A stretch of DNA of 64,000 nucleotides. Origin: Saprospira sp. CCB-QB6 (GTDB lineage: Bacteria; Bacteroidota; Bacteroidia; Chitinophagales; Saprospiraceae). Location of the stretch: NCBI RefSeq assembly GCF_028464065.1, contig NZ_CP116808.1:2001501-2065500 (forward strand). The letters run 5' to 3'. The translations under genes and the position numbers were made by a program. Shown here piece after piece: positions 5,955 through 61,233 of this stretch (position 1 is its first letter; every line of letters starts with the position of its first letter). Under the pieces are notes generated by a model. The model was not told the DNA's origin. It saw nothing but the letters and a program-made list of their open reading frames with translations, and ran no database searches.

Positions 5955-6087
5955 TTTTTCTGGTATTTGGTTACTTCTTGCGAAGATAATGAACTTGTGT
6001 TAAAACTAGAGGACCTAAGGACTAAATCTGGTTTTTGCCCCTTTCTAAGGCCTGAAAATCAGTGACCAATTCTTTTTTTAGGTTTTT

Positions 6088-6230
6088 GGGGCCCGCGGCC
6101 AGCTAGGCCTTTGGCCTAGATTGGCCGCCGCTATGCTTCGCCGCTCGCGCTCTGCTCGGCCCTGCGTTTTTTTCGCTGCGCTCAAAAAACTTGGTCTGGC
6201 CTTCGGCCACCCCGCCGCATCGCTAGGCCA
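6088..6230 (-). repeat. Dispersed multi-hairpin element, copy 2 (reverse)
   Basis: Same family as the 2251 copy, other orientation. Hairpin 2 here is an A/T stem (GTTTTTTT against AAAAAAC around CGCTGCGCTC), while the blocks on both sides are unchanged. The tail contains an extra palindrome CTAGGCC-TTT-GGCCTAG inside GGCC arms. It lies in the pheS 5' region. Confidence 0.85.
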
Positions 6231-6251
6231 AATTCCTCCTTTGTTTAAGCC

Positions 6252-6322
6252 TTAGCCACTGGGCCTAAACAACAACAACCGCCCTGCTGAGACGGTTGCT
6301 GGAAGAGCTCTCTAGTGGCTGA
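6252..6322. other. Nested stem-loop in the gap between pheS and the beta-flower gene
   Basis: TTAGCCACT (6252-6260) pairs with AGTGGCTGA (6314-6322) over 9 positions with one G-U, and encloses CAACAACCG (6273-6281) paired with CGGTTGCTG (6293-6301) with one mismatch. A palindrome AGAGCTCT follows. The 63 bases after it (6323-6385) hold nothing I recognise. Confidence 0.45.
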
Positions 6323-6385
6323 CTAGAAACGCTCTAAACACATAATTGGCATAACACAATTAAAATAGTTCTGCTGTTGCAAAGC

Positions 6386-6790
6386 CTAATGCAATTCTAA
6401 AATATAGAAAAAGTAAAAGGCCGCAATTCGCCATCTGGCAGCTCCACGAGCATTGCCCACCTTAGAGCCCTTATAATAGACATCGCCGTCTGACTCTACT
6501 TCTCCAATTTTAGAGCCCTTGTAATAGACATCTCCATCTGACTCAATTTCTCCAATCTTGGAGCCTTTGTAGTAGACATCTCCATCTGATTCTACCTCGC
6601 CAACTCGAGAGCCTTTGTAATAAATGTCTCCATCTGACTCAAATTCGGCCACTTTGGACCCCTTGTAGTACACATCTCCATCTGATTCAATTTCTCCAAC
6701 TTTAGAGCCTTTGTAATAAACAGATTGAGCTTGGGTGGCCGTGACCGCAAGGACCATCAATAGAGCCATGAAAAAAATACGCTTGAGCAT
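6386..6790 (-). CDS. Exported 5-fold beta-flower-type repeat protein
   Basis: 134 residues. A signal peptide (MLKRIFFMALLMVLAVTATQAQ, cut near 22) is followed by five full and one partial 16-residue repeats of the form YYKGSKVGEIESDGDV. The end, NARGAARWRIAAFYFFY, resembles the closing strand of the 5-fold beta-flower family of Bacteroidota, so I assign it there by resemblance. Start at 6790 is chosen for the signal peptide; the frame is open to 6862. The repeats are also close at DNA level (48-base unit), which allows expansion or contraction by recombination. Function of the family is unknown to me; it should be a small secreted or periplasmic protein. Confidence 0.7.
   Translation of the reverse strand: MLKRIFFMALLMVLAVTATQAQSVYYKGSKVGEIESDGDVYYKGSKVAEFESDGDIYYKGSRVGEVESDGDVYYKGSKIGEIESDGDVYYKGSKIGEVESDGDVYYKGSKVGNARGAARWRIAAFYFFYILELH
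6425..6725 (-). repeat. 48-base tandem repeat inside the beta-flower gene
   Basis: Six successive 48-base units encode the YYKGSK(V/I)GE(I/V)ESDGD(V/I) peptides. Units differ at a few codon positions, so this is an older array, not an identical one. Confidence 0.75.
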
Positions 6791-7081
6791 AAATCTATGG
6801 ATTGAATAAATGAATTGACCTTCTCCTAAAGGAAAAGCCATAGCGCAAAGACTTAGATTCATAAAATAAAGAACCTATTTCCCTTCTCCTACAAGCTAAA
6901 AGATCAAAAAATAATTTCTTATAATATACGGTTTATGCATTACTTCTGCCCAAAAAACAAGCTGGGATCGAATAAAAATCAGCTTTCTTTTTATTGTGTA
7001 CAATAAAGGTAGTAAACTATTTGGTAAACGCAAATAATTTTTGATTTTATTTTGGGTAGGCTAGGCAGCCCAGCTATTTAT

Positions 7082-7223
7082 AAAGGAGCGAAGCGACTTG
7101 GCTGAGGGATGGGCAGCAGTGGCCCGAAGGGCCAGACCCAGCCGCCGAAGGCGGCGCAGGGCCGAGCGAAGAGCGAGCTGCGAGACAGCCCGACCCGCCC
7201 GAAGGGCGGGGCAGCCCCAAAAA
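7082..7223 (+). repeat. Dispersed multi-hairpin element, copy 3 (forward)
   Basis: Head is GGCTGAGGGATGG in place of the GGCCTAGCGATG form, preceded by GGAGCGAAGCGAC. Hairpin 1 GGCCC-GAA-GGGCC, hairpin 2 GCCGCC-GAA-GGCGGC. The tail is of the second type: GGCCCGACCC, then CGCCC-GAA-GGGCG, then GCAGCCCCAAAAA. Confidence 0.85.
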
Positions 7224-7228
7224 GGCAT

Positions 7229-7261
7229 AAAAAAAGCCAGTCAAGCATAGAGCAGACTGGC
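7229..7261 (-). terminator. Rho-independent terminator of the 7271-7747 gene
   Basis: On the minus strand GCCAGTC and GACTGGC pair around a 12-base loop and are followed by seven T residues. It begins 10 bases after the stop codon. Confidence 0.75.
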
Positions 7262-7270
7262 AGGGTGGAT

Positions 7271-7747
7271 TTATTTTTTGGCCTTGGCCTCATTGAGTTG
7301 GAGTAAAAACTGCAGAAGGTCGGGATGTTTTTCTAGGTAATATTTCCAGTAGTGGCTACGGATAAAAGAGACCGATTGGCCGAACTGGCCTTTTTCTTTA
7401 AAGTGCAGGGTAACTCGGCTAAAGAGGAAAAGGTTGCTCTCCTCAAAATGCTCGAGGCTGCCGTAGCTATATTTTACTGATTTGAAATAATTGGAAACAT
7501 AGATATGTTCTTCATCTAGGCCCACCCAGAGGTTGCGCATAAAAAAGAGGTAGAACAGGCCCAGCATTGAGAGAAAAAAGGAGCTGAGAATGAGCTTGGC
7601 CGTTAGGGGCGAAAAGGGCTCTTGCAGTTGTTCTAGGGGCGAGAGCCAAACCACAAGGGTAAAGCCGCCGAAGAGAATGCACCAAAGGAAGGGCAAAATA
7701 ATTTTGGACAGAAAGGTCCAGCGAGAAGAAACAGTTTGTATAGCCAT
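7271..7747 (-). CDS. Small membrane protein of unknown function, two TM segments
   Basis: 158 residues. Two hydrophobic segments (about 14-35 and 47-70) are followed by a soluble part of some 85 residues (MRNLWVGLDEEHIYVSN... to SHYWKYYLEKHP) rich in beta-strand pattern, which could be a PH-like domain of the bacterial membrane-anchored kind. I do not recognise a named family. It is transcribed alone: a TATCTTTG promoter box lies 28 bases upstream and a clean terminator just downstream. Confidence 0.7.
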   Translation of the reverse strand: MAIQTVSSRWTFLSKIILPFLWCILFGGFTLVVWLSPLEQLQEPFSPLTAKLILSSFFLSMLGLFYLFFMRNLWVGLDEEHIYVSNYFKSVKYSYGSLEHFEESNLFLFSRVTLHFKEKGQFGQSVSFIRSHYWKYYLEKHPDLLQFLLQLNEAKAKK

Positions 7748-7873: not shown

Positions 7874-8830
7874 TTAGTGGCGGTAGTGCCAGCTATCCTT
7901 ATTTTTATTAAAGGTAAAGGAGAGGCCCAGCTCATGGCTTTGGCCAAGTTGGTAGCTATATTGGCCAAAGGGCTGTGTAAAGGTGTAGCCGACTTGGACT
8001 TGGCGGTTGTATCGGAAGCTAAAGTGGGTGAGGAAGCTGCCATTACTTACATAATTGGCTGAAATGCCCAGCATATTGTTCCAGATATAGCGCAGGCCTA
8101 AGTTTATCTGCATAGGGGCGTTGGCGGCATATTTTACCCAAACAGAAGGAAAGAGGACCGAAGGGGTTTGTTTTTCCTTATGCAATGGGATTCTTCCGCC
8201 CATTTGGAGTTGAACATGTGTAGCTCTTTGAATAATAGAGAACTGATTTTGATTGGCTGTTTCAAATTTGCTTTGCAGTTGTAGCAATTGGTTGGCCGAG
8301 ACGCCAAAATAGACATTATCGCCAATGTAGAGCAGGCCAGCGCTAGCATCGGGCAGGATAAGCTGGTCCTTTTGGCCCAAATCGACGGGGTCGCCAGCAT
8401 CATTAAAGCTTAGTTTAGCGCCATCCAGCTCATATTGTTGGGCTGAAAGAGAGAGGCCCAGCGCAATGCGGTTTCGGCTAAACTTGGCGCGTTTATCCTC
8501 ATCGCCAATTTGGATTTGGTAGGCATAGCTAGCCGAAATAGCGGTATAGGCGCTAGGGCCAGTCTGATCGCGAAGAATATGGCCAGCTAGGCCCATATTT
8601 TTCTTTTCCAAAAACTGTCGGTAGCCTAGGGCAAAGGTTTGCGGGGCTTCCTCAATCTGTGTCCACTGTTGGCGATAGCTAGCACTTAGAATTTGCTGTC
8701 CATCCCAGCCCGCCATAGCGGGGTTGATCACAAAAGAGTTTTCGCTATACTCATTGAAAAGAGGTAGCTGTTGAGCCTGTAGAGAGTTGGTCAAGAAGGC
8801 CACTCCCAAGAAAAAATAAAGAAACTTCAT
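7874..8830 (-). CDS. PorP/SprF family type IX secretion outer-membrane protein
   Basis: 318 residues with an N-terminal signal peptide ending LQAQ. It opens with QLPLFNEYSENSFVINPAMAG, the hallmark of the PorP/SprF family, and continues as an outer-membrane beta-barrel with alternating aromatic strands. Family members work next to T9SS-exported, CHU_C-type proteins and are thought to anchor or help export them; SprF is needed for SprB in Flavobacterium. Exactly this partner type is encoded 11 bases upstream (8842-10134), so the two form a two-gene unit. Confidence 0.88.
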   Translation of the reverse strand: MKFLYFFLGVAFLTNSLQAQQLPLFNEYSENSFVINPAMAGWDGQQILSASYRQQWTQIEEAPQTFALGYRQFLEKKNMGLAGHILRDQTGPSAYTAISASYAYQIQIGDEDKRAKFSRNRIALGLSLSAQQYELDGAKLSFNDAGDPVDLGQKDQLILPDASAGLLYIGDNVYFGVSANQLLQLQSKFETANQNQFSIIQRATHVQLQMGGRIPLHKEKQTPSVLFPSVWVKYAANAPMQINLGLRYIWNNMLGISANYVSNGSFLTHFSFRYNRQVQVGYTFTQPFGQYSYQLGQSHELGLSFTFNKNKDSWHYRH

Positions 8831-8841
8831 AGGAGTAGATT

Positions 8842-10134
8842 TTAGTTGCGAACAATAGTGACGGGGCCTGTAAGGCGGCCAAGGCTGCCCCCAAGGTTGA
8901 TCACATAATAATAGGTACCATCGGGCAGGCTTTGTCCGCCAAATTTCCCGTTCCAGTTATTTTGGTAATCGTCTGATTCAAAAACGATATCGCCCCAGCG
9001 GTTAAAGACTTGGACCTGTCGTTTTTCTTGTAGGCTAATCAAATCAATGACCCAAAGGTCATTAATGCCGTCATCATTGGGGCTAAAAGCAGAAGGGACG
9101 ACAAACTCAAAGTCAGCCTGACAATTATAGACCGTATAGAAGGTATAATCGGTAAAATTGTCTAGCCCCTCTCGCAGGCTCAATTGGCCGTTAGAGTTGC
9201 CCAACCCGCCACTAATAAAGGGCTGGCAGTTGCCCGTATTATCCCAAGCGCCAATTTCCTCCATAGAGGGGGCCCCTCCCAAATCATTGGGCCAAGTCCC
9301 AATATAGCGGACAATTTGCTGTTCGTTGGCATTAAAGTCGGGCCCTAGCATGCCGCTATTCGATTGCAGTTGTAGGCTAAGGTCGCTGCCGCCCATTTGC
9401 TCTTCTCGGATTTCCCAAGTTCGGCCAACAGAGGCATCATTGCGCAGGGCCCCCATCTCGCCATTTTCATAGACATTGGCAAAGAGACGGACCCAATAGG
9501 CGTCTACCTCGCCTTGGTTGCTAATTTGCGCGGGACTATATTCGCCAGCGGCTAGACCTAAGGGGAAATCTTTGCTTTCGCCATGACCTAGGCCCTCAAT
9601 AATGAGGAAGTCGCCATCGGTAGAGCCTGCAATGCCTTGACTCACCACAAAGCTGTTATCGCCATAGCTCCGTAGACTAGGGGCTTGGCCATTATCGCCC
9701 AAACGCAGGTTTTGCCCATCCAAAAAGAGCAAGCCCGCCTGAAGGTCGAGTTGTTGGCGCACATGGGCATCTTCTCCCAATAAATAGAGGCCATCGTTAT
9801 TGTTGAGCATTAATTTGGGCAAAGAGGCCGAGGCCGCCGCCAATTGTTGGCTCTGCTGTTGGTTATAAAGTGTATTGGGCTGAATAAACTGTATTTCGCC
9901 CTCTCCGGGCAGTTGAGCAGCAGGACCCTGCTGCCAGTTTTGGCCATAAAACTGCAGCTCTCCCTGAGCCGCAGAATGCAATTGCCCATCTAGTTGCATA
10001 TTGCCAAAAACGGCCATTTTATCTGCCGAACCAATACTCATCTGGGCATTATCCGCCACATAAATGGCCTCTTGTGCCCAAATTGCAGCCGGCAGGCTCA
10101 ATAAGGCCGAAAAAAGATAAGATCGTAATCGCAT
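8842..10134 (-). CDS. T9SS cell-surface protein with gliding-motility C-terminal (CHU_C) domain
   Basis: 430 residues. Signal peptide (residues 1-21, ending IWAQ). The central part is a beta-rich surface region with many Asn/Gly/Gln. The last ~90 residues (FVVPSAFSPNDDGINDLW ... VQVFNRWGDIVFES ... LPDGTYYYVINLGG ... GPVTIVRN) are a type-B T9SS sorting domain of the CHU_C/gliding-motility type. The protein should be exported by T9SS and attached to the outer surface. It sits directly upstream of a PorP/SprF gene, the usual partner. A hairpin at 10148-10180 lies in its leader. Confidence 0.88.
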   Translation of the reverse strand: MRLRSYLFSALLSLPAAIWAQEAIYVADNAQMSIGSADKMAVFGNMQLDGQLHSAAQGELQFYGQNWQQGPAAQLPGEGEIQFIQPNTLYNQQQSQQLAAASASLPKLMLNNNDGLYLLGEDAHVRQQLDLQAGLLFLDGQNLRLGDNGQAPSLRSYGDNSFVVSQGIAGSTDGDFLIIEGLGHGESKDFPLGLAAGEYSPAQISNQGEVDAYWVRLFANVYENGEMGALRNDASVGRTWEIREEQMGGSDLSLQLQSNSGMLGPDFNANEQQIVRYIGTWPNDLGGAPSMEEIGAWDNTGNCQPFISGGLGNSNGQLSLREGLDNFTDYTFYTVYNCQADFEFVVPSAFSPNDDGINDLWVIDLISLQEKRQVQVFNRWGDIVFESDDYQNNWNGKFGGQSLPDGTYYYVINLGGSLGRLTGPVTIVRN

Positions 10135-10147
10135 ATCATTTTATCTT

Positions 10148-10180
10148 AAAAAGGGGGATGAATCTATACTCAGCCCCCTT
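10148..10180 (-). terminator. Hairpin between the S74 gene and the CHU_C/PorP pair
   Basis: On the minus strand GGGGG and CCCCC, flanked by AA/TT, enclose a 16-base loop and are followed by five T residues, 14 bases before the CHU_C start. It can end transcripts coming from the S74 gene or act as an attenuator for the pair. Confidence 0.55.
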
Positions 10181-10209
10181 AGGTCTTAGAAAGAATAATC
10201 TCATTAAAG

Positions 10210-10507
10210 TTTTGGGGCGTTACTCCTTACAGTCGTCGAACTGCGGCTTGCAGCCTTGTTGTCCGCCTTCGGCGGGCGCTACGTTTACTCCCGTTGGTCG
10301 TCGAACTGTAGACTAAAGTCCTTGTTGTCGCAGCTCGCTGCTGTTTTGGGGCCTCCGCTGCGGCTTCGCCTTGCGGCGCTACGTTCCGCAGCTCGCTGTT
10401 CGCTCGGCCCTGCGCCGCCTTCGGCGGCTAGGTCTGCGGCTTCGCCGCACTGCTGCACATCGCTAGGCCAGGGCCCTTTTGGCCCTAGCGGGGGCTTGCC
10501 CCCGCTA
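10210..10507 (-). repeat. Dispersed multi-hairpin element, copy 4 (reverse, compound)
   Basis: The core (10343-10470) has hairpin 2 CGCCGCC-TTC-GGCGGC and a first hairpin GTCTGCGG-CTTC-GCCGCAC. A second partial tail unit (10210-10342) with TTTTGGGGC and GTCGTCGAACTG parts is joined at the GGGG end. On the head side a perfect 10-base stem TAGCGGGGGC-TT-GCCCCCGCTA (10486-10507) abuts the S74 stop codon. Confidence 0.8.
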
Positions 10508-10516
10508 GCTGAACCA

Positions 10517-12604
10517 CTACTTTTTGTCGTTGAGCAATTGCTCTAGGCGCTGCATACGCGCTTCCAAATCAGAAAGCTTTTTGCTTTGGGCCTCAATAGT
10601 AGCTGCTTGCTCATCAATAATGAGTTGTTGTTCTTTACTTACTTCAATCAAGATGGGAATCAAGCCCGTGTAGTTAACAAGGAAATGTCCTTGTTCACAT
10701 TTTTTGGCCAATTCAGGAGCTACAGCAGCTACTTCTTGGGCCATGATACCAATAGTAGGAACGGGCTTTTCTCCTTTGGCCAAATCGGCTTCTGATAATT
10801 TATGCTCATAACGGTAACCATTTAGTTGCATGAGCATAGAAACCGCATTAGTAATAGGTTGAATATTTTGTTTGAGATTGCGGTCTGAGGTCTGAAAATA
10901 TTGTCCACCAGTTTGCTCAATATAGGCTCTCTTGATATGGTTATCTTCTTCCCAGAACTGAATGAGATCGTTGTCACCGGGAGAGATCAAAATCAATTGG
11001 TCGCCATCAGTGAACATTCCCGTGTCTTCAAATGGGTTGGTTCCCCAGAATACCCCATTACCGAAACCAAAGCTGTCTCCATTCAAGTCAGAATCTCCAT
11101 GCTTAATTTCGGCAGCCAAAGGAAAGGCAGAAATTGCGTAGTGAGAACCAGCTGTAGTTGTGGTCCAAATAGAAGCAGTTGCAGCAGGTGATTGCCAGCT
11201 AGCCAAACCGTTGGCATCAGAGGTTAAAACGAGTCCTGCGGCGGCCCCTGTGCGCATGCGAATTTGGCCATCGACATCTAGGCGGGCTGTGGGAACTGTG
11301 GTGCCAAGTCCTAGGTCGCCAGCCTGAGTCAGTACCATGCGAGTGGCGGCTGTACGACCCGATGCAGTATTGATAAGATTGCCTAAGGCAAATTTGAGTT
11401 TATTTTGATCGCCTTCATCCATAAAAATAGAGGCATCTTCAGCTGCGGTGTTGGTATAGAAGCTATAGCCTGCCTGAGAGCTTCCGCCGCCATTCGCATT
11501 AACAAGGATACCTGCAAAGCCATTAGCGGTACTGTCACTAATTTCTACTGTAGACCAGTTTTCTGTACGGTTAGGGCCAATTGCCGTAAAGTAGGAGCTA
11601 GGCGATACATAGACTCTAGGCGTTCCATTGGTGCCAATTTGAAAGCCTGTGTTATCTGCTGTTCCCAGATAGTTGGAGCTATTGGTTCCTGTATTACCAT
11701 TTAGGCCCCAAGCAGTAGGCAAAGTGACCGTATTTCCTCCCGCAATGGAGAGGCTGTTCCCAGAAACAGAAAGCGTTTGGGCATCGGTATTGTCTAGGTA
11801 AGTACTAAGGTCAACCGAGTTAGCATTTTGGATAGAAAGGGTGTTTCCAGAAAGTGCGATAGTTTGGTTATCGGTATTATCTAGATAGGGCGTGAGGTCA
11901 ATGCTACCGCCATTAGAAACCGTAAGGGTATTTCCGCTAAGGGTAATTGTTTGGGCATCGGTATTGTCTAGATAAGGGCTAAGGTCGATGTTGTTTCCAT
12001 TAGAAATAGAGAGGGTGTTTCCTGTAAGGGTAACCGTTTGGTTATCGGTATTATCCAAATAAGGTGTAAGGTCTACCGAGTTAGCATTTTGGATAGAGAG
12101 TGTATTTCCCGTAATGCTAATAGTTTGTTGGTCATTATCGGCGTGGAGTGTAATTGTATTCCCGTTAGTAATGCTAATATCTTGGCCGTTGATACTTAAT
12201 GTTTGGGCATCGGTATTGTCTAGATAGGGCGTGAGATCAATGCTACCACCATTAGAGAGAGTGAGTGTATTTCCGCTAAGGGTAATTGTTTGGGCATCGG
12301 TATTATCCAAATAGGGTGTGAGATCTACCGAGTTAGCATTTTGGATAGAGAGTGTATTTCCGGCCAGGCTAAGGTTTTGGTTATCGCTACCAGCGGGTAG
12401 GGTAACGGCATTTCCGCCTGAGATAGAGAGCAGGCCATTGTTAAGTGTTAGCGTTTGAGCATCTTCAATAGTTAACCAGCTATTGGTCACAGTATTCCAA
12501 TATTGGAACTGATCGAGCTCAGCGTTGAAGATGAGGAGTGAGTTTGCATTTTGGGGGTCAAAGCCCGCTGCATTGCTAATTGCGTCTCGTTGAGCAGAGT
12601 TCAT
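10517..12604 (-). CDS. Peptidase S74 / endosialidase-chaperone surface protein with beta-repeat stalk (main frame)
   Basis: 695 residues from the first in-frame ATG. The N-terminal third is a stalk of about nine ~29-residue repeats such as DNTDAQTITLSGNTLTLSNG followed by SIDLTPYL. A globular middle follows. The C-terminal ~120 residues carry the intramolecular chaperone of endosialidase (S74): SDRNLKQNIQPI, NGYRYEHK, GIMAQEVAAVAPEL, then a coiled coil. In phage tail spikes this domain trimerises and cuts itself off; in Bacteroidota it occurs on surface proteins. The frame starts in mid-domain: 53 upstream codons, including a perfect signal peptide, lie in another frame (see 12605-12762), so the main frame as it stands has no export signal. 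Confidence 0.85.
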   Translation of the reverse strand: MNSAQRDAISNAAGFDPQNANSLLIFNAELDQFQYWNTVTNSWLTIEDAQTLTLNNGLLSISGGNAVTLPAGSDNQNLSLAGNTLSIQNANSVDLTPYLDNTDAQTITLSGNTLTLSNGGSIDLTPYLDNTDAQTLSINGQDISITNGNTITLHADNDQQTISITGNTLSIQNANSVDLTPYLDNTDNQTVTLTGNTLSISNGNNIDLSPYLDNTDAQTITLSGNTLTVSNGGSIDLTPYLDNTDNQTIALSGNTLSIQNANSVDLSTYLDNTDAQTLSVSGNSLSIAGGNTVTLPTAWGLNGNTGTNSSNYLGTADNTGFQIGTNGTPRVYVSPSSYFTAIGPNRTENWSTVEISDSTANGFAGILVNANGGGSSQAGYSFYTNTAAEDASIFMDEGDQNKLKFALGNLINTASGRTAATRMVLTQAGDLGLGTTVPTARLDVDGQIRMRTGAAAGLVLTSDANGLASWQSPAATASIWTTTTAGSHYAISAFPLAAEIKHGDSDLNGDSFGFGNGVFWGTNPFEDTGMFTDGDQLILISPGDNDLIQFWEEDNHIKRAYIEQTGGQYFQTSDRNLKQNIQPITNAVSMLMQLNGYRYEHKLSEADLAKGEKPVPTIGIMAQEVAAVAPELAKKCEQGHFLVNYTGLIPILIEVSKEQQLIIDEQAATIEAQSKKLSDLEARMQRLEQLLNDKK
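11750..12440 (-). repeat. ~87-base tandem repeats coding the stalk of the S74 protein
   Basis: About eight or nine units, each coding a peptide like LSGNTLTLSNGGSIDLTPYL flanked by DNTDAQT or DNTDNQT. Units alternate between two flavours (SIQNANSVDL and SNGGSIDL), which suggests duplication of pairs. Confidence 0.75.
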
Positions 12605-12762
12605 GCGAGGGATAAGAATACCCTTTTGTTGGCTTTCTAACTCGAGTAAAGAGCTTTGTTGAATGTTGTTGGGATTGGTACCAATTTTAACTTGAGCCTT
12701 GAGGGTTCCCCAGCAGAGACCTGCGGGGAGGAGAAGAGATAAGAGTAGTTTTTCGTTCTCAT
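12605..12762 (-). pseudogene. Signal peptide and first residues of the S74 protein, one base out of frame
   Basis: An ATG at 12760-12762 starts ATG AGA ACG, then a run of five A (12749-12753). With six A the frame would read MRTKKLLLSLLLPAGLCWGT and, further, LKAQVKIGTNPNNIQQSSLLE through to the methionine at 12604. This is a textbook signal peptide with an AQ cleavage site and the SLLELESQQKGILIPRM start seen in this class of surface proteins. With five A the ATG frame and the body are out of register by one base. No ATG exists in the body frame between a stop near 12778 and 12604. Full-length protein would be about 748 residues. Confidence 0.75.
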
Positions 12763-12802
12763 AGATTATTGATATTTATTGCTTTGCAGACTTTATTTTG
12801 GT

Positions 12803-12810
12803 CAAAAATA
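12803..12810 (-). promoter_or_regulatory. -7 box (TATTTTTG) upstream of the S74 signal-peptide start
   Basis: Fits TAnnTTTG on the minus strand, 41 bases before the ATG at 12762, which supports that ATG as the natural start. No good -33 box is seen. Confidence 0.35.
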
Positions 12811-12819
12811 GCTTCCGTT

Positions 12820-12852
12820 TTTTGTCATTAGTAATTCTGTTATATGACAAAA
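12820..12852. promoter_or_regulatory. 9-base inverted repeat, possible operator
   Basis: TTTTGTCAT (12820-12828) and ATGACAAAA (12844-12852) are exact inverted repeats 15 bases apart, just upstream of the S74 promoter box. The rest of the 12853-13086 gap is AT-rich without an ORF; it has one more short palindrome, TGCTTGC-GTA-GCAAGCA (12923-12940), followed by five T residues. Confidence 0.35.
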
Positions 12853-13086
12853 GGTAGACAAGGCAGACTTTTGTGAAATAATCTATGTTATGAATCTCCT
12901 TTTATGTTTAATTTGAAGTCGTTGCTTGCGTAGCAAGCATTTTTCAATAAGTCATGGTTGGGAGTTTTTGGGGAAAGCTAGATGCCCTATACTTTTTAAA
13001 TGAAAAGTTAATAGTTTGCTCATTAGTTAAGTAGTCTTGCCTGAATAAGCAGCTTAGGTTATTTGATAATATATACTAGGATGTAG

Positions 13087-13225
13087 AGGAGCGCAGCGAC
13101 TGGCTGAGGGGCTGTAGCAGGGCCGCCGAAGGCGGCAGACCAAAGGCCGAAGGCCTGCAGGGCCGAGCAGAACTGCGAGCTGCGCAATGGCCCGACCCGC
13201 CGCAGGGCGGGGCAGCCCCAAAAAA
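13087..13225 (+). repeat. Dispersed multi-hairpin element, copy 5 (forward)
   Basis: Head of the GGCTGAGGGGCTGTAGCAG type, hairpin 1 GGCCGCC-GAA-GGCGGC, hairpin 2 AAAGGCC-GAA-GGCCTG, tail of the second type ending GCAGCCCCAAAAA. It ends 47 bases before the sensor kinase start. Confidence 0.85.
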
Positions 13226-16405: not shown

Positions 16406-16532
16406 CCTACTATTGTCCACTTCTTGTCTACTCCAGTTTTTTTGAAAGTGAACAAAAAGGACGGTTATTGTGCCTGACAATAATCCAATTAGCTTTTGCT
16501 ATGAGGATTAGGGTGTAGTGTAATTTTGCTTG

Positions 16533-59544: not shown

Positions 59545-61002
59545 ATGACTAAACGATCTCTTTATCTTCTTTTGGGCCTTTTCGCACTTTTGGGCCTGAG
59601 CTTTTTGCCTCTGGGTATTGCAGCTCCCTTGCTTTATGCCCTTCGCTTGGGCTTGCTCGTGGCCGCTAGCCAACTAGCCCTAAAACCTCTACACCTTCCC
59701 CGCCGATTTTTTATAATCTTAGGCAGTTTGGTGGTCTTTTTAGCTCTAGGCTTGGCCGCTAACTGGCTGTTTGTTGCTGCACAAGTTGCCGTTTTTCTCT
59801 TTTTTACCTTGGTTTTGGTAGATGCTATTTTGCTTTTTCACCCCAAAATTAAACTTAAAGGAGAACGCAAACTACCCAAGCTGTTTTCACTCAGCGATCC
59901 CAATCCAATCAAATTAGAACTGCAGAACCAATCGCCCGTTAGTCTACAATTAGAGATTATTGATGAGATTCCCGTTCAATTTCAAAAGCGAGATTTTCAG
60001 CTTTTTCATCAATTGCCAGCTGGCGAAAAAGATACTTTGGTCTATGAACTTAAGCCCTTAGAACGAGGCGAATATGTCTTTAGAAATATCAACTTTTTTC
60101 TGCGCTCTAAATTGGGCCTGATTGAACGGCATATTGTGGTTGAGCAAGAACAAACAATTCCTGTTTATCCCTCAATTATCCAAATGCGGAAATATGAACT
60201 TTTGGCCCTAGCCAGAATTTCTATTTTTCCAGGGGTAAAGAAAATGCGAAGATTGGGCAATAGCTACGAGTTTGAGCAAATCCGCAATTATGTAAAAGGA
60301 GATGATTTTAGAAGCATTAACTGGAAGGCCACTAGCCGTCGAAATGAGCTGATGGTCAACCAATATGAAGATGAACGCTCTCAGCAGGTTTTTTGTGTGA
60401 TTGACAAGGGGCGCTCTATGAAAATGCCTTTTGAGGGTCTTAGCTTGATGGATTATGCCATTAATAGTAGCTTGGTCATTTTGAATATTGCCCTGCAAAA
60501 GCACGATAAGGCGGGCCTGATGAGCTTTTCGGACAAAATTGGAAGTACCGTAAAAGCAGAAAGTGGTCCCAAACATTTACGGACCATATTGGAGGCCCTT
60601 TATCGAGAAAAAGAGCGAAACTTTGAAGCCAACTACGAACTCCTCTTTCAGGCTTCTCGCCGTTTTATTCGCCGCCGCAGCCTAATTTTTCTATACACCA
60701 ACTTTGAAAGCTTTTCGGCCATGCAGCGGGTTTTGCCCATTTTGCGGCGCATTAACCATTTGCATTTGTTGGTAGTCGTCTTTTTTGAGAATACCGAAAT
60801 TCAGGATTATGCCAAGCAAGAGGCGCTCGATACCGAAATGATTTACAATCGGACGATTGCCCAAAAGTTTGTCGAAGAAAAGCAACGGATTGTTCGAGAA
60901 CTACGGCAATATGGAATTCAATCTATTTTGACTCGGCCCGAAGATCTTTCCATTAACACCGTGAATAAATATTTAGAGCTCAAAGCAAGGGGCTTGATTT
61001 AA
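59545..61002 (+). CDS. DUF58 / von Willebrand-like membrane protein
   Basis: 485 residues. Three membrane helices in the first ~95 residues, a beta-domain, then DUF58 core RRLGNSYEFEQIRNYVKGDD followed by FRSINWKATSRRNELMVNQY and a VWA-like part (VFCVIDKGRSMKMPFEGLSL; DxGRSM replaces the DxSxS metal site). Such proteins usually sit in MoxR-DUF58 operons; no moxR gene is adjacent here. It may act in envelope assembly or stress, as for relatives. Single gene ended by a bidirectional terminator. Confidence 0.87.
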   Translation: MTKRSLYLLLGLFALLGLSFLPLGIAAPLLYALRLGLLVAASQLALKPLHLPRRFFIILGSLVVFLALGLAANWLFVAAQVAVFLFFTLVLVDAILLFHPKIKLKGERKLPKLFSLSDPNPIKLELQNQSPVSLQLEIIDEIPVQFQKRDFQLFHQLPAGEKDTLVYELKPLERGEYVFRNINFFLRSKLGLIERHIVVEQEQTIPVYPSIIQMRKYELLALARISIFPGVKKMRRLGNSYEFEQIRNYVKGDDFRSINWKATSRRNELMVNQYEDERSQQVFCVIDKGRSMKMPFEGLSLMDYAINSSLVILNIALQKHDKAGLMSFSDKIGSTVKAESGPKHLRTILEALYREKERNFEANYELLFQASRRFIRRRSLIFLYTNFESFSAMQRVLPILRRINHLHLLVVVFFENTEIQDYAKQEALDTEMIYNRTIAQKFVEEKQRIVRELRQYGIQSILTRPEDLSINTVNKYLELKARGLI

Positions 61003-61007
61003 TACTC

Positions 61008-61044
61008 AAAAAAGGGGGAATAGCTGCAGCTATTCCCCCCCTTT
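61008..61044. terminator. Long palindromic terminator after the DUF58 gene
   Basis: AAAAAAGGGGGAATAGC-TGCA-GCTATTCCCCCCCTTTT, an almost perfect stem with A and T tracts on both sides, 5 bases after the stop. Confidence 0.9.
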
Positions 61045-61074
61045 TGTTGCGCTAGGCCCAGAGGGCGTTTTCTT

Positions 61075-61193
61075 GGCCTAGCGATGTGGAGGGGTGGCCG
61101 AAGGCCAGACCAAGCGGGCGAAGCCCGCGCAGGGCCGAGCGAGCAGCGAGCCCCGAAACGTAGCGCCGCAGCTTTGCTGCGGAGGCCCCAAAA
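61075..61193 (+). repeat. Dispersed multi-hairpin element, copy 23 (forward)
   Basis: Head GGCCTAGCGATGTGGAGGGG, hairpin 1 GGCC-GAA-GGCC, hairpin 2 AAGCGGGC-GAA-GCCCGCG, tail CCGCAGC-TTT-GCTGCGG ending GGCCCCAAAA. It lies between the DUF58 terminator and the uvrA promoter. Confidence 0.85.
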
Positions 61194-61233
61194 CAATAAC
61201 TTCAAGAAAGTTCTCATCTTTTTTAGGGCCCTA

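What the first reader, a model, noticed from the sequence alone, without database searches (positions are those of the whole stretch)
6088..6230. One element has its second hairpin rebuilt as an A/T stem
In this copy hairpin 2 is GTTTTTTT paired with AAAAAAC around CGCTGCGCTC, while all other copies use GC stems. The blocks on both sides (GGCCCTGC and GGTCTGGCC in this orientation) are unchanged. So pairing, and not GC content, appears to be what is kept at this site. It is the single most informative copy.
Basis: seen in the sequence. Interest (0 to 1): 0.68.

Follow-up and report, generated by a model that had tools for sequence, protein, structure and literature searches.

The report
Alternating folded DNA repeats, swappable hairpins
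The odd A/T hairpin is one ordinary version of a replaceable hairpin in a folded DNA repeat that sits between genes more than 1,200 times in this marine Saprospira genome, and, unexpectedly, neighbouring copies in the parts examined nearly always point in opposite directions.

Summary
The A/T stem is real (GTTTTTT/AAAAAAC, 6166-6190), sits between the two named blocks, and is more than chance. It is not unique: in an 864-kb sample 38 of 273 copies have A/T-rich hairpin-2 arms, all 38 fully paired, and this hairpin type has 32 genomic matches (9 with exactly these letters). Three related species also carry A/T stems at this site, giving two different versions in all, so "pairing, not GC content" is supported. 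It is not the most informative copy: it is a chimera with another helix (P5) broken.

The element is an intergenic multi-hairpin repeat of about 110-140 nt (1,280 core matches, reversed control 0) with covarying closing helices, no G-T pairs in hairpin 2, and GNA triloops almost only on the bottom strand (502 versus 5). That fits a folding single DNA strand better than RNA. Positions are conserved between species, yet hairpin 2 is replaced wholesale at 54 of 67 orthologous sites (~86% identity).

Unexpected: copies alternate in orientation along the sampled chromosome (229 opposite, 25 same neighbours), even across genes, whatever the gene direction. I know of no described system that does this. 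Its cause is not established; an inverted-pair origin or a role in chromosome organisation are the leading ideas.

The parts
6073..6087 (+). T-rich tract on the left side of the element (TTTTTTTAGGTTTTT)
   Evidence: 75-85% T in the 5 bases before GGGGC/GGGCC in 248 refined copies, whatever the direction of the left gene
6088..6229 (+). whole element copy, type C 5' half with type A 3' half
   Evidence: HMM hit of 79 bits starting at 6072; comparison with three other species
6090..6094 (+). P1 5' strand GGCCC; partner 6225-6229 AGGCC (4 of 5 pairs in this copy)
   Evidence: P1 pairs 5 of 5 (G-T allowed) in 215 of 229 copies, mean 4.93 against 4.30 shuffled
6095..6128 (+). hairpin 1, GCGGCCA...TGGCCGC with inner CTAGGCC TTT GGCCTAG
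   Evidence: (I20)
6140..6143 (+). P5 5' strand GCCG; would-be partner 6210-6213 is CCCC here (broken), CGGC in the three other species
   Evidence: P5 fully paired (G-T allowed) in 228 of 256 copies
6144..6159 (+). constant middle hairpin CTCGC-GCTCT-GCTCGG
   Evidence: CTCGC-N(3-7) precedes the core in 263 of 275 copies
6164..6192 (+). hairpin 2 slot; A/T stem 6166-6172 / 6184-6190, loop TCGCTGCGCTC
6193..6197 (+). conserved GGTCT block
   Evidence: part of the core pattern
6197..6209 (+). hairpin 3 TGGCC-TTC-GGCCA
6225..6229 (+). P1 3' strand AGGCC, right end of the element

Best explanation
What it is: one of well over a thousand copies of a folded, extragenic DNA element of the genus Saprospira, sharing sequence blocks with a wider Bacteroidia repeat. 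The fold is P1 enclosing hairpin 1 and P5, with P5 enclosing a constant hairpin, hairpin 2 and hairpin 3 (P1, P5 and hairpin 2 shown by covariation; the nesting is read from them). The bottom strand is probably the one that folds, as single-stranded DNA (inferred from loop types, absence of G-T pairs in hairpin 2 and independence of gene direction). Hairpin 2 is a swappable slot: it is replaced as a block, often by a hairpin seen in other copies, and usually both versions pair (replacement shown; the route, short-tract ectopic conversion or template switching at a hairpin, inferred). Copies stay put between species, and orientation alternates along the sampled chromosome and plasmid (shown): + then -, with no gene between (52 of 120) or genes, usually of one direction (63 of 68). 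Most likely use (inferred, weak): paired boundary or anchor sites read on the folded strand, or the fixed remains of an inverted-pair mobile element.
For: 1,280 core matches, reversed control 0; 1,079 of a longer pattern, control 0; 960-1,020 in each of three congeners. 0 of 275 cores overlap a called gene. P5 fully paired in 228 of 256 copies with at least 7 letter combinations, P1 in 215 of 229. Hairpin 2: 1,477 Watson-Crick pairs, 0 G-T, 58 other. GNA triloops 502 on bottom, 5 on top strand, of 826; bottom strand has the lower or equal DNA folding energy in 58 of 60 sampled copies. d(GNA) loops closed by C-G are a stable DNA motif (PMC5815330, passages). Hairpin 2 replaced at 54 of 67 orthologous sites; 53 of the 62 changed sites have at least 4 perfect pairs in both species; replaced at 11 of 24 sites even at 96.8% identity. 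76 of 80 mapped copies in the same place and orientation in a second species. Alternation: 229 of 254 neighbours, 123 of 131 solitary gene-separated neighbours, 116 of 130 in a second species; 20 kb of the plasmid: + - + - + - + -.
Against: No function was shown. Single-strand folding is inferred only; RNA parameters also favour the bottom strand (48 of 60), and in the three copies whose DNA folds were printed the program did not return exactly my nested structure. Some GNNA loops are GNRA (37 of 91), and P5 has a few G-T pairs (7 cells). 25 of 254 neighbours break the alternation. The HMM was trained on 140 copies of the same sample. Partners of a + - pair do not share types clearly more than expected (29 of 52 far pairs, 6 of 21 near pairs, expectation 0.42). 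In other Bacteroidia the few neighbours on one stretch of the wider repeat do not alternate (3 opposite, 5 same, sparse).
Confidence: 0.6

Rival explanations
1. RNA element: the fold acts in mRNA as terminator, attenuator or 3'-end stabiliser.
For: Strong hairpins; a T tract at one end; the T side lies close to stop codons where a gene end faces it (median 37 nt); convergent gaps hold an element somewhat more often (48 of 84) than co-directional (131 of 361) or divergent ones (39 of 77), though many co-directional gaps are very short.
Against: Orientation is unrelated to gene direction: left/right genes (-,-) 77, (+,+) 69, (+,-) 60, (-,+) 44 of 250. The T tract precedes the hairpins and is present whatever the gene direction. 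No G-T pair among the hairpin-2 pairs. No Rfam match at gathering score in the window; nothing over the two copies in 5980-7300 at E up to 5.
Confidence: 0.15
2. REPIN/MITE-like mobile element: an inverted pair moved by a Y1 (HUH) transposase; alternation is a relic, because every inverted pair reads + - from either direction.
For: Two neighbouring copies with no gene between are + - in 52 of 55 cases, same strand in 3, never - +. REP doublets are inverted pairs predicted to form hairpins in ssDNA or mRNA (PMC3116915, passages). Y1_Tnp genes are present in all six genus genomes searched.
Against: Positions conserved (76 of 80); genes inside + - intervals are as conserved as those in - + intervals (40 of 43 against 90 of 95). 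Y1_Tnp genes also occur in the two congeners without the element; of 6 such loci read from element-bearing genomes 4 have one copy and none has two within about 1.5 kb. Solitary copies separated by genes alternate as well (123 of 131).
Confidence: 0.3
3. The A/T stem is a recent insertion of unrelated poly-T/poly-A.
For: The letters are low-complexity.
Against: The same stem with a loop and a flank change stands at this site in G001, and a different A/T stem (ACAAAAC/GTTTTGT) in G002 and G005; 32 matches of this hairpin type genome-wide.
Confidence: 0.02
4. Double-stranded DNA landmark: a protein binds the conserved blocks in duplex form and the hairpins are only spacers kept palindromic by template-switch repair.
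For: Near-exact palindromes without G-T pairs; orientation-specific alternation.
Against: Does not explain the covarying P5 and P1 helices between distant strands or the GNA strand bias.
Confidence: 0.2

Closest known systems
REP sequences / REPINs / BIMEs (repetitive extragenic palindromes and inverted REP doublets)
   Same: Extragenic, high copy number, inverted doublets, alternating orientation inside clusters, hairpins predicted in ssDNA or mRNA (PMC2817692, PMC3116915, PMC3733652: passages).
   Different: Here about 110-140 nt with four or more hairpins and long-range helices, alternation over kilobases across genes, hairpins swapped as blocks. REPs are 20-40 bp, most with a GTAG or CGTC tag (PMC3733652, abstract passage).
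IS200/IS605-derived ends and palindrome-associated elements
   Same: Structured ends read on one DNA strand (PMC6006769, abstract in a listing); a T-rich left flank as possible target (recalled similarity).
   Different: No linked transposase found in the loci read; copies inverted to each other; positions fixed.
Bacteroidia repeat GGTCGGGCTNTNC...ATCCCTNACGC (motif recalled from memory, then tested)
   Same: T tract, GGGCG left end, GGTCGGGC and ATCCCT blocks; type B copies of this genome carry GGTCGGGCTGT...CCATCCCTCAGCC. 68 of 295 class genomes match, reversed control 0.
   Different: At most 44 matches in any of those genomes with this pattern; the window's own genome has 0, since its copies end in other letters. 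Relation rests on shared blocks, not on a tree. I know no published name.

Membership tests
REP/REPIN | GTAG or CGTC tag next to the palindrome | tested here: not met
   GTAG stands beside hairpin 1 on the bottom strand in 96 of 229 full copies, mostly type A; ATAG in 32, neither in 101. CGTC was not counted
REP/REPIN | short (20-40 bp) palindrome | tested here: not met
   227 of 229 full copies are 110 nt or longer
REP/REPIN | inverted doublets | tested here: met
   52 of 55 neighbour pairs without a gene between are + -; but most copies are solitary, 188 of 295
REP/REPIN | linked RAYT (Y1 transposase) flanked by the repeats | tested here: inconclusive
   Y1_Tnp genes present; 0 of 6 loci read from element-bearing genomes has copies on both sides within about 1.5 kb, 4 have one; one further match in the window's genome was not read
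Described structured RNA (Rfam) | match to a curated family | tested here: not met
   0 at gathering score in 64 kb; nothing over the two copies in 5980-7300 at E<=5
Integron attC sites (definition recalled) | sites in one orientation in a cassette array | tested here: not met
   Orientation alternates
Integron attC sites (definition recalled) | tyrosine integrase IntI in the genome | not tested
   No search made
Intrinsic terminators | hairpin followed by T run on the transcribed strand | tested here: not met
   The T run precedes the hairpins in element orientation and is independent of gene direction
Bacteroidia GGTCGGGC...ATCCCT repeat | T tract, left end pairing with right end, GGTCGGGC and ATCCCT blocks | tested here: inconclusive
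   Blocks shared by type B copies and seen in other genera; own genome 0 with the exact pattern; no tree or profile comparison made

The most novel reading that the evidence does not exclude
The chromosome is punctuated by over a thousand folded-strand boundary elements laid down as alternating inverted sites, so that successive segments lie between inverted pairs; the orientation pattern, not the letters, is what selection keeps, while the hairpins themselves are traded among copies faster than ordinary substitutions accumulate. Such a pattern would suit a protein or pairing system that folds the chromosome in a zig-zag.
Probability: 0.3. Interest if true: 0.9.

Novelty: new variant of a known kind. 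Interest (0 to 1): 0.72.

Why it matters
It gives a natural experiment in which the pairing of a DNA element is kept while its letters are exchanged, in many replicates across sister species. The alternation of orientation is unexplained: if functional, it points to an organising principle of a bacterial chromosome; if a relic, it records how a repeat family spread. Both are testable in a marine bacterium not known to me as a pathogen.

Tried and rejected
Rejected: recent poly-T/poly-A insertion; known Rfam family (weak Flavo-1 hits in L138 and L139 lie outside the element); accessory cassettes bounded by + - pairs (genes inside equally conserved); orientation as a proxy for gene direction; replication-strand polarity (both orientations in similar numbers in most stretches, with exceptions such as L010, 7 and 4); pairs sharing types. 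Doublets alone as the cause of alternation (134 opposite of 147 solitary neighbours with doublets skipped; shuffle mean 89.5, maximum 110 of 20,000). One distant search of phage records with this copy: no match. One search compared the wrong side of pheS for L056 and L057 and is disregarded; one search replaces it. The two-mismatch search was useless (253 hits in its reversed control against 634). A test of alternation in other genera was too sparse: 26 copies in 20 stretches, neighbours on one stretch 3 opposite and 5 same, which does not show alternation there. Papers: the Lewin and Sa g1 genome papers are not held; the WH-T announcement was read whole and mentions no such repeat. PMC2817692, PMC3116915, PMC3733652, PMC8049555, PMC5815330 and PMC11101458 were seen as passages; all other papers only in listings. 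That I found no description of this element rests on paper searches only (in one search only 10 of 96 papers were listed); subscription journals are mostly not covered.

Full report
The observation. The A/T stem is present at 6166-6190 (GTTTTTT / AAAAAAC around an 11-nt loop). The flanking blocks GGCCCTGC and GGTCTGGCC are present and strongly over-represented in the window (27 and 16 matches against 4.3 and 0.3 expected). Among the window's copies it is the only A/T-stem one.

The family. A core pattern (GCTCGGCCCT, 14-26 nt, GGTCT) has 558 + 521 matches in this 4.24-Mb genome and none in the reversed control; a second core has 638 + 642, control none. Of 40 genomes searched (this one and 39 relatives) three congeners have 960, 1,020 and 1,016 matches, two congeners (63% and 90% complete) have none, and three other-genus genomes have 2, 4 and 1, the first with 1 in its control as well. 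An HMM finds none at 20 bits or more in 386 kb of the element-free congener G004.

What the slot holds. I read 864 kb (the window plus 40 stretches, one of them plasmid). 275 copies have the core; 44 have hairpin-2 segments under 55% GC and the exact letters of the flagged copy occur three times, itself included. With arms of six, 197 of 273 pair completely against at most 25 in 500 arm shuffles; 38 of 273 are A/T-rich and all 38 pair completely (two short segments left out). A pattern for this hairpin type has 32 genomic matches, 9 with exactly these letters.

The same site in other species. Upstream of pheS the element is present in all four element-bearing species. This genome has GTTTTTT/AAAAAAC; G001 has the same stem with a changed loop and flank; G002 and G005 have ACAAAAC/GTTTTGT. 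So the site keeps an A/T stem, in two versions. In this genome alone the 3' part of the element and the right flank differ: the copy joins a type C left half to a type A right half, pairs P1 at 4 of 5 positions, and cannot form P5 (GCCG against CCCC, the only such combination among 256). I read it as a recombinant copy.

Fold. P1 pairs 5 of 5 in 215 of 229 full copies (GGCCT/AGGCC 118, GGCTG/CAGCC 64, GGCCC/GGGCC 22; mean 4.93, shuffled 4.30). P5 pairs 4 of 4 in 228 of 256 (GCAG/CTGC, GGGG/CCCC, AGGG/CCCT, GTGG/CCAC, GCCG/CGGC, GCGG/CCGC, CTGG/CCAG and others; mean 3.83, shuffled 2.94). In both counts G-T was allowed as a pair. 263 of 275 copies had the constant hairpin and 256 of these a readable hairpin 3; the others were left out. 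Hairpin-2 pairs: 1,477 Watson-Crick, 0 G-T, 58 others (8 of 256 copies gave no stem by my parse).

Which strand, which polymer. Inside elements 826 triloop hairpins (stem of at least 5) were counted; 502 read GNA on the bottom strand, 5 on the top strand. Hairpin-3 loops of four read mostly GTCA (18) and GTTA (10) on the bottom strand, not GNRA; over the whole element 37 of 91 bottom-strand GNNA loops are GNRA. d(GNA) loops closed by C-G are a known stable DNA motif (PMC5815330, passages; the Hirao and Yoshizawa papers were seen only as references). DNA energies favour the bottom strand in 58 of 60 copies, RNA energies in 48 of 60. Together with the lack of G-T pairs in hairpin 2 and of any link to gene direction this favours single-stranded DNA, but does not prove it.

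Place. None of the 275 cores overlaps a called gene (my own crude gene caller). The T tract stands left of the element whether the left neighbour is a gene end or start. Gene strands around copies, in element orientation: (-,-) 77, (+,+) 69, (+,-) 60, (-,+) 44 of 250, with 25 more at stretch edges. Gaps holding an element: 48 of 84 convergent, 131 of 361 co-directional, 39 of 77 divergent.

Alternation. In the window 24 copies run - + - + with one exception. A strict pattern in 864 kb gives 209 opposite and 35 same neighbours. With the HMM (295 copies at 20 bits or more; best reversed control 11.5 bits; trained on 140 copies of the same sample) neighbours are opposite 229 times and the same 25 times; at lag two the same 168 and opposite 45 (binomial p about 1e-42, which ignores dependence). 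Neighbours without a gene between are + - in 52 cases, same-strand in 3, - + in 0; those separated by genes are opposite 177 times and the same 22 times. Solitary, gene-separated neighbours: 123 opposite, 8 same. The second species gives 116 and 14 in 477 kb, 80-kb stretches of the other two 23:2 and 22:0, the sampled 20 kb of the plasmid eight copies in perfect alternation. + to - distances are shorter (median 1,123) than - to + (3,422). About a fifth of the genome was examined; the rest was not.

Turnover. Of 101 copies in stretches with synteny to G005, 20 were unmapped and 1 off the end; of the other 80, 76 have a copy in the same place and orientation, 3 none, 1 opposite (at an inversion breakpoint). 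Of 67 site pairs that could be parsed, hairpin 2 is identical in 5, changed by at most 3 letters in 8 and replaced in 54; 53 of 62 changed pairs have at least 4 perfect pairs in both species. A/T and GC stems replace one another at other sites. Between G002 and G005, 96.8% identical, 11 of 24 are replaced; in one of these the 45 nt to the left and 40 nt to the right are unchanged. So replacement is by block, at least sometimes of only a few tens of bases.

Mechanism. Shown: helices by covariation, block replacement, conserved positions, alternation in the sample. Inferred: folding of the bottom strand in vivo; short-tract conversion or template switching; the role. An inverted-pair origin explains alternation simply, since a + - pair reads + - from either side, but does not easily explain the pairs that enclose conserved genes. 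A role in chromosome organisation would explain the maintenance but has no direct evidence here.

Known kinds. REP/REPIN/BIME elements are nearest; the tag and size tests are not met, the linked-transposase test is inconclusive, the inverted-doublet test is met. A Bacteroidia repeat with blocks GGTCGGGC and ATCCCT (motif recalled, then tested) matches in 68 of 295 genomes, control none, and in the window's own genome 0, because its copies end differently; type B copies share those blocks. Relatives of the element in other genera were found as one to a few copies per genome, with HMM scores of 13 to 29 bits. In 20 stretches of other Bacteroidia the wider repeat was too sparse to test alternation, and its few neighbours (3 opposite, 5 same) do not show it.

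Noticed in passing
61002-61186: An inversion breakpoint of this genome against three relatives falls on the element copy at 61073-61206, as expected for recombination between inverted copies.
   Followed up: partly
copies with cores at 2336 (-) and 19383 (+); G001 at the pheS site (L058): A second module, TTACTCCCTTCGGTCGTCGAACTGCG...TTGTTGTCGC, stands in the linker between hairpin 1 and P5 of some copies.
   Followed up: no
7098-7240 against G001: G001 has only the first letters of this copy, apparently after a deletion between short GCCGCCT repeats.
   Followed up: no
7878-13188: This block has no aligned counterpart at the site in G001 and G002, where a truncated copy (P1 and hairpin 1 part) stands at the junction.
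   Followed up: no
L026, L031 and L036, left of copies at 16477 (-), 13039 (-) and 10907 (+): A different upstream module (ATCGCTTTGCGAAGC...ATGAGGGT..AAACCCTCATGA) stands where the T tract and the start of hairpin 1 usually are.
   Followed up: no
hairpin-2 slot ends, 256 copies: First and last letters of the slot go together without pairing (G..T/G/A or T..C); on the bottom strand T..C reads 5'-GA..GA-3', like tandem sheared G-A pairs (the G-A reading is recalled knowledge).
   Followed up: partly
L165-L204 and the listing: In the wider Bacteroidia repeat the letter after GGTCGGGCT and the letter before ATCCCT seem to covary (A/T, T/A, G/C), seen by eye only.
   Followed up: no
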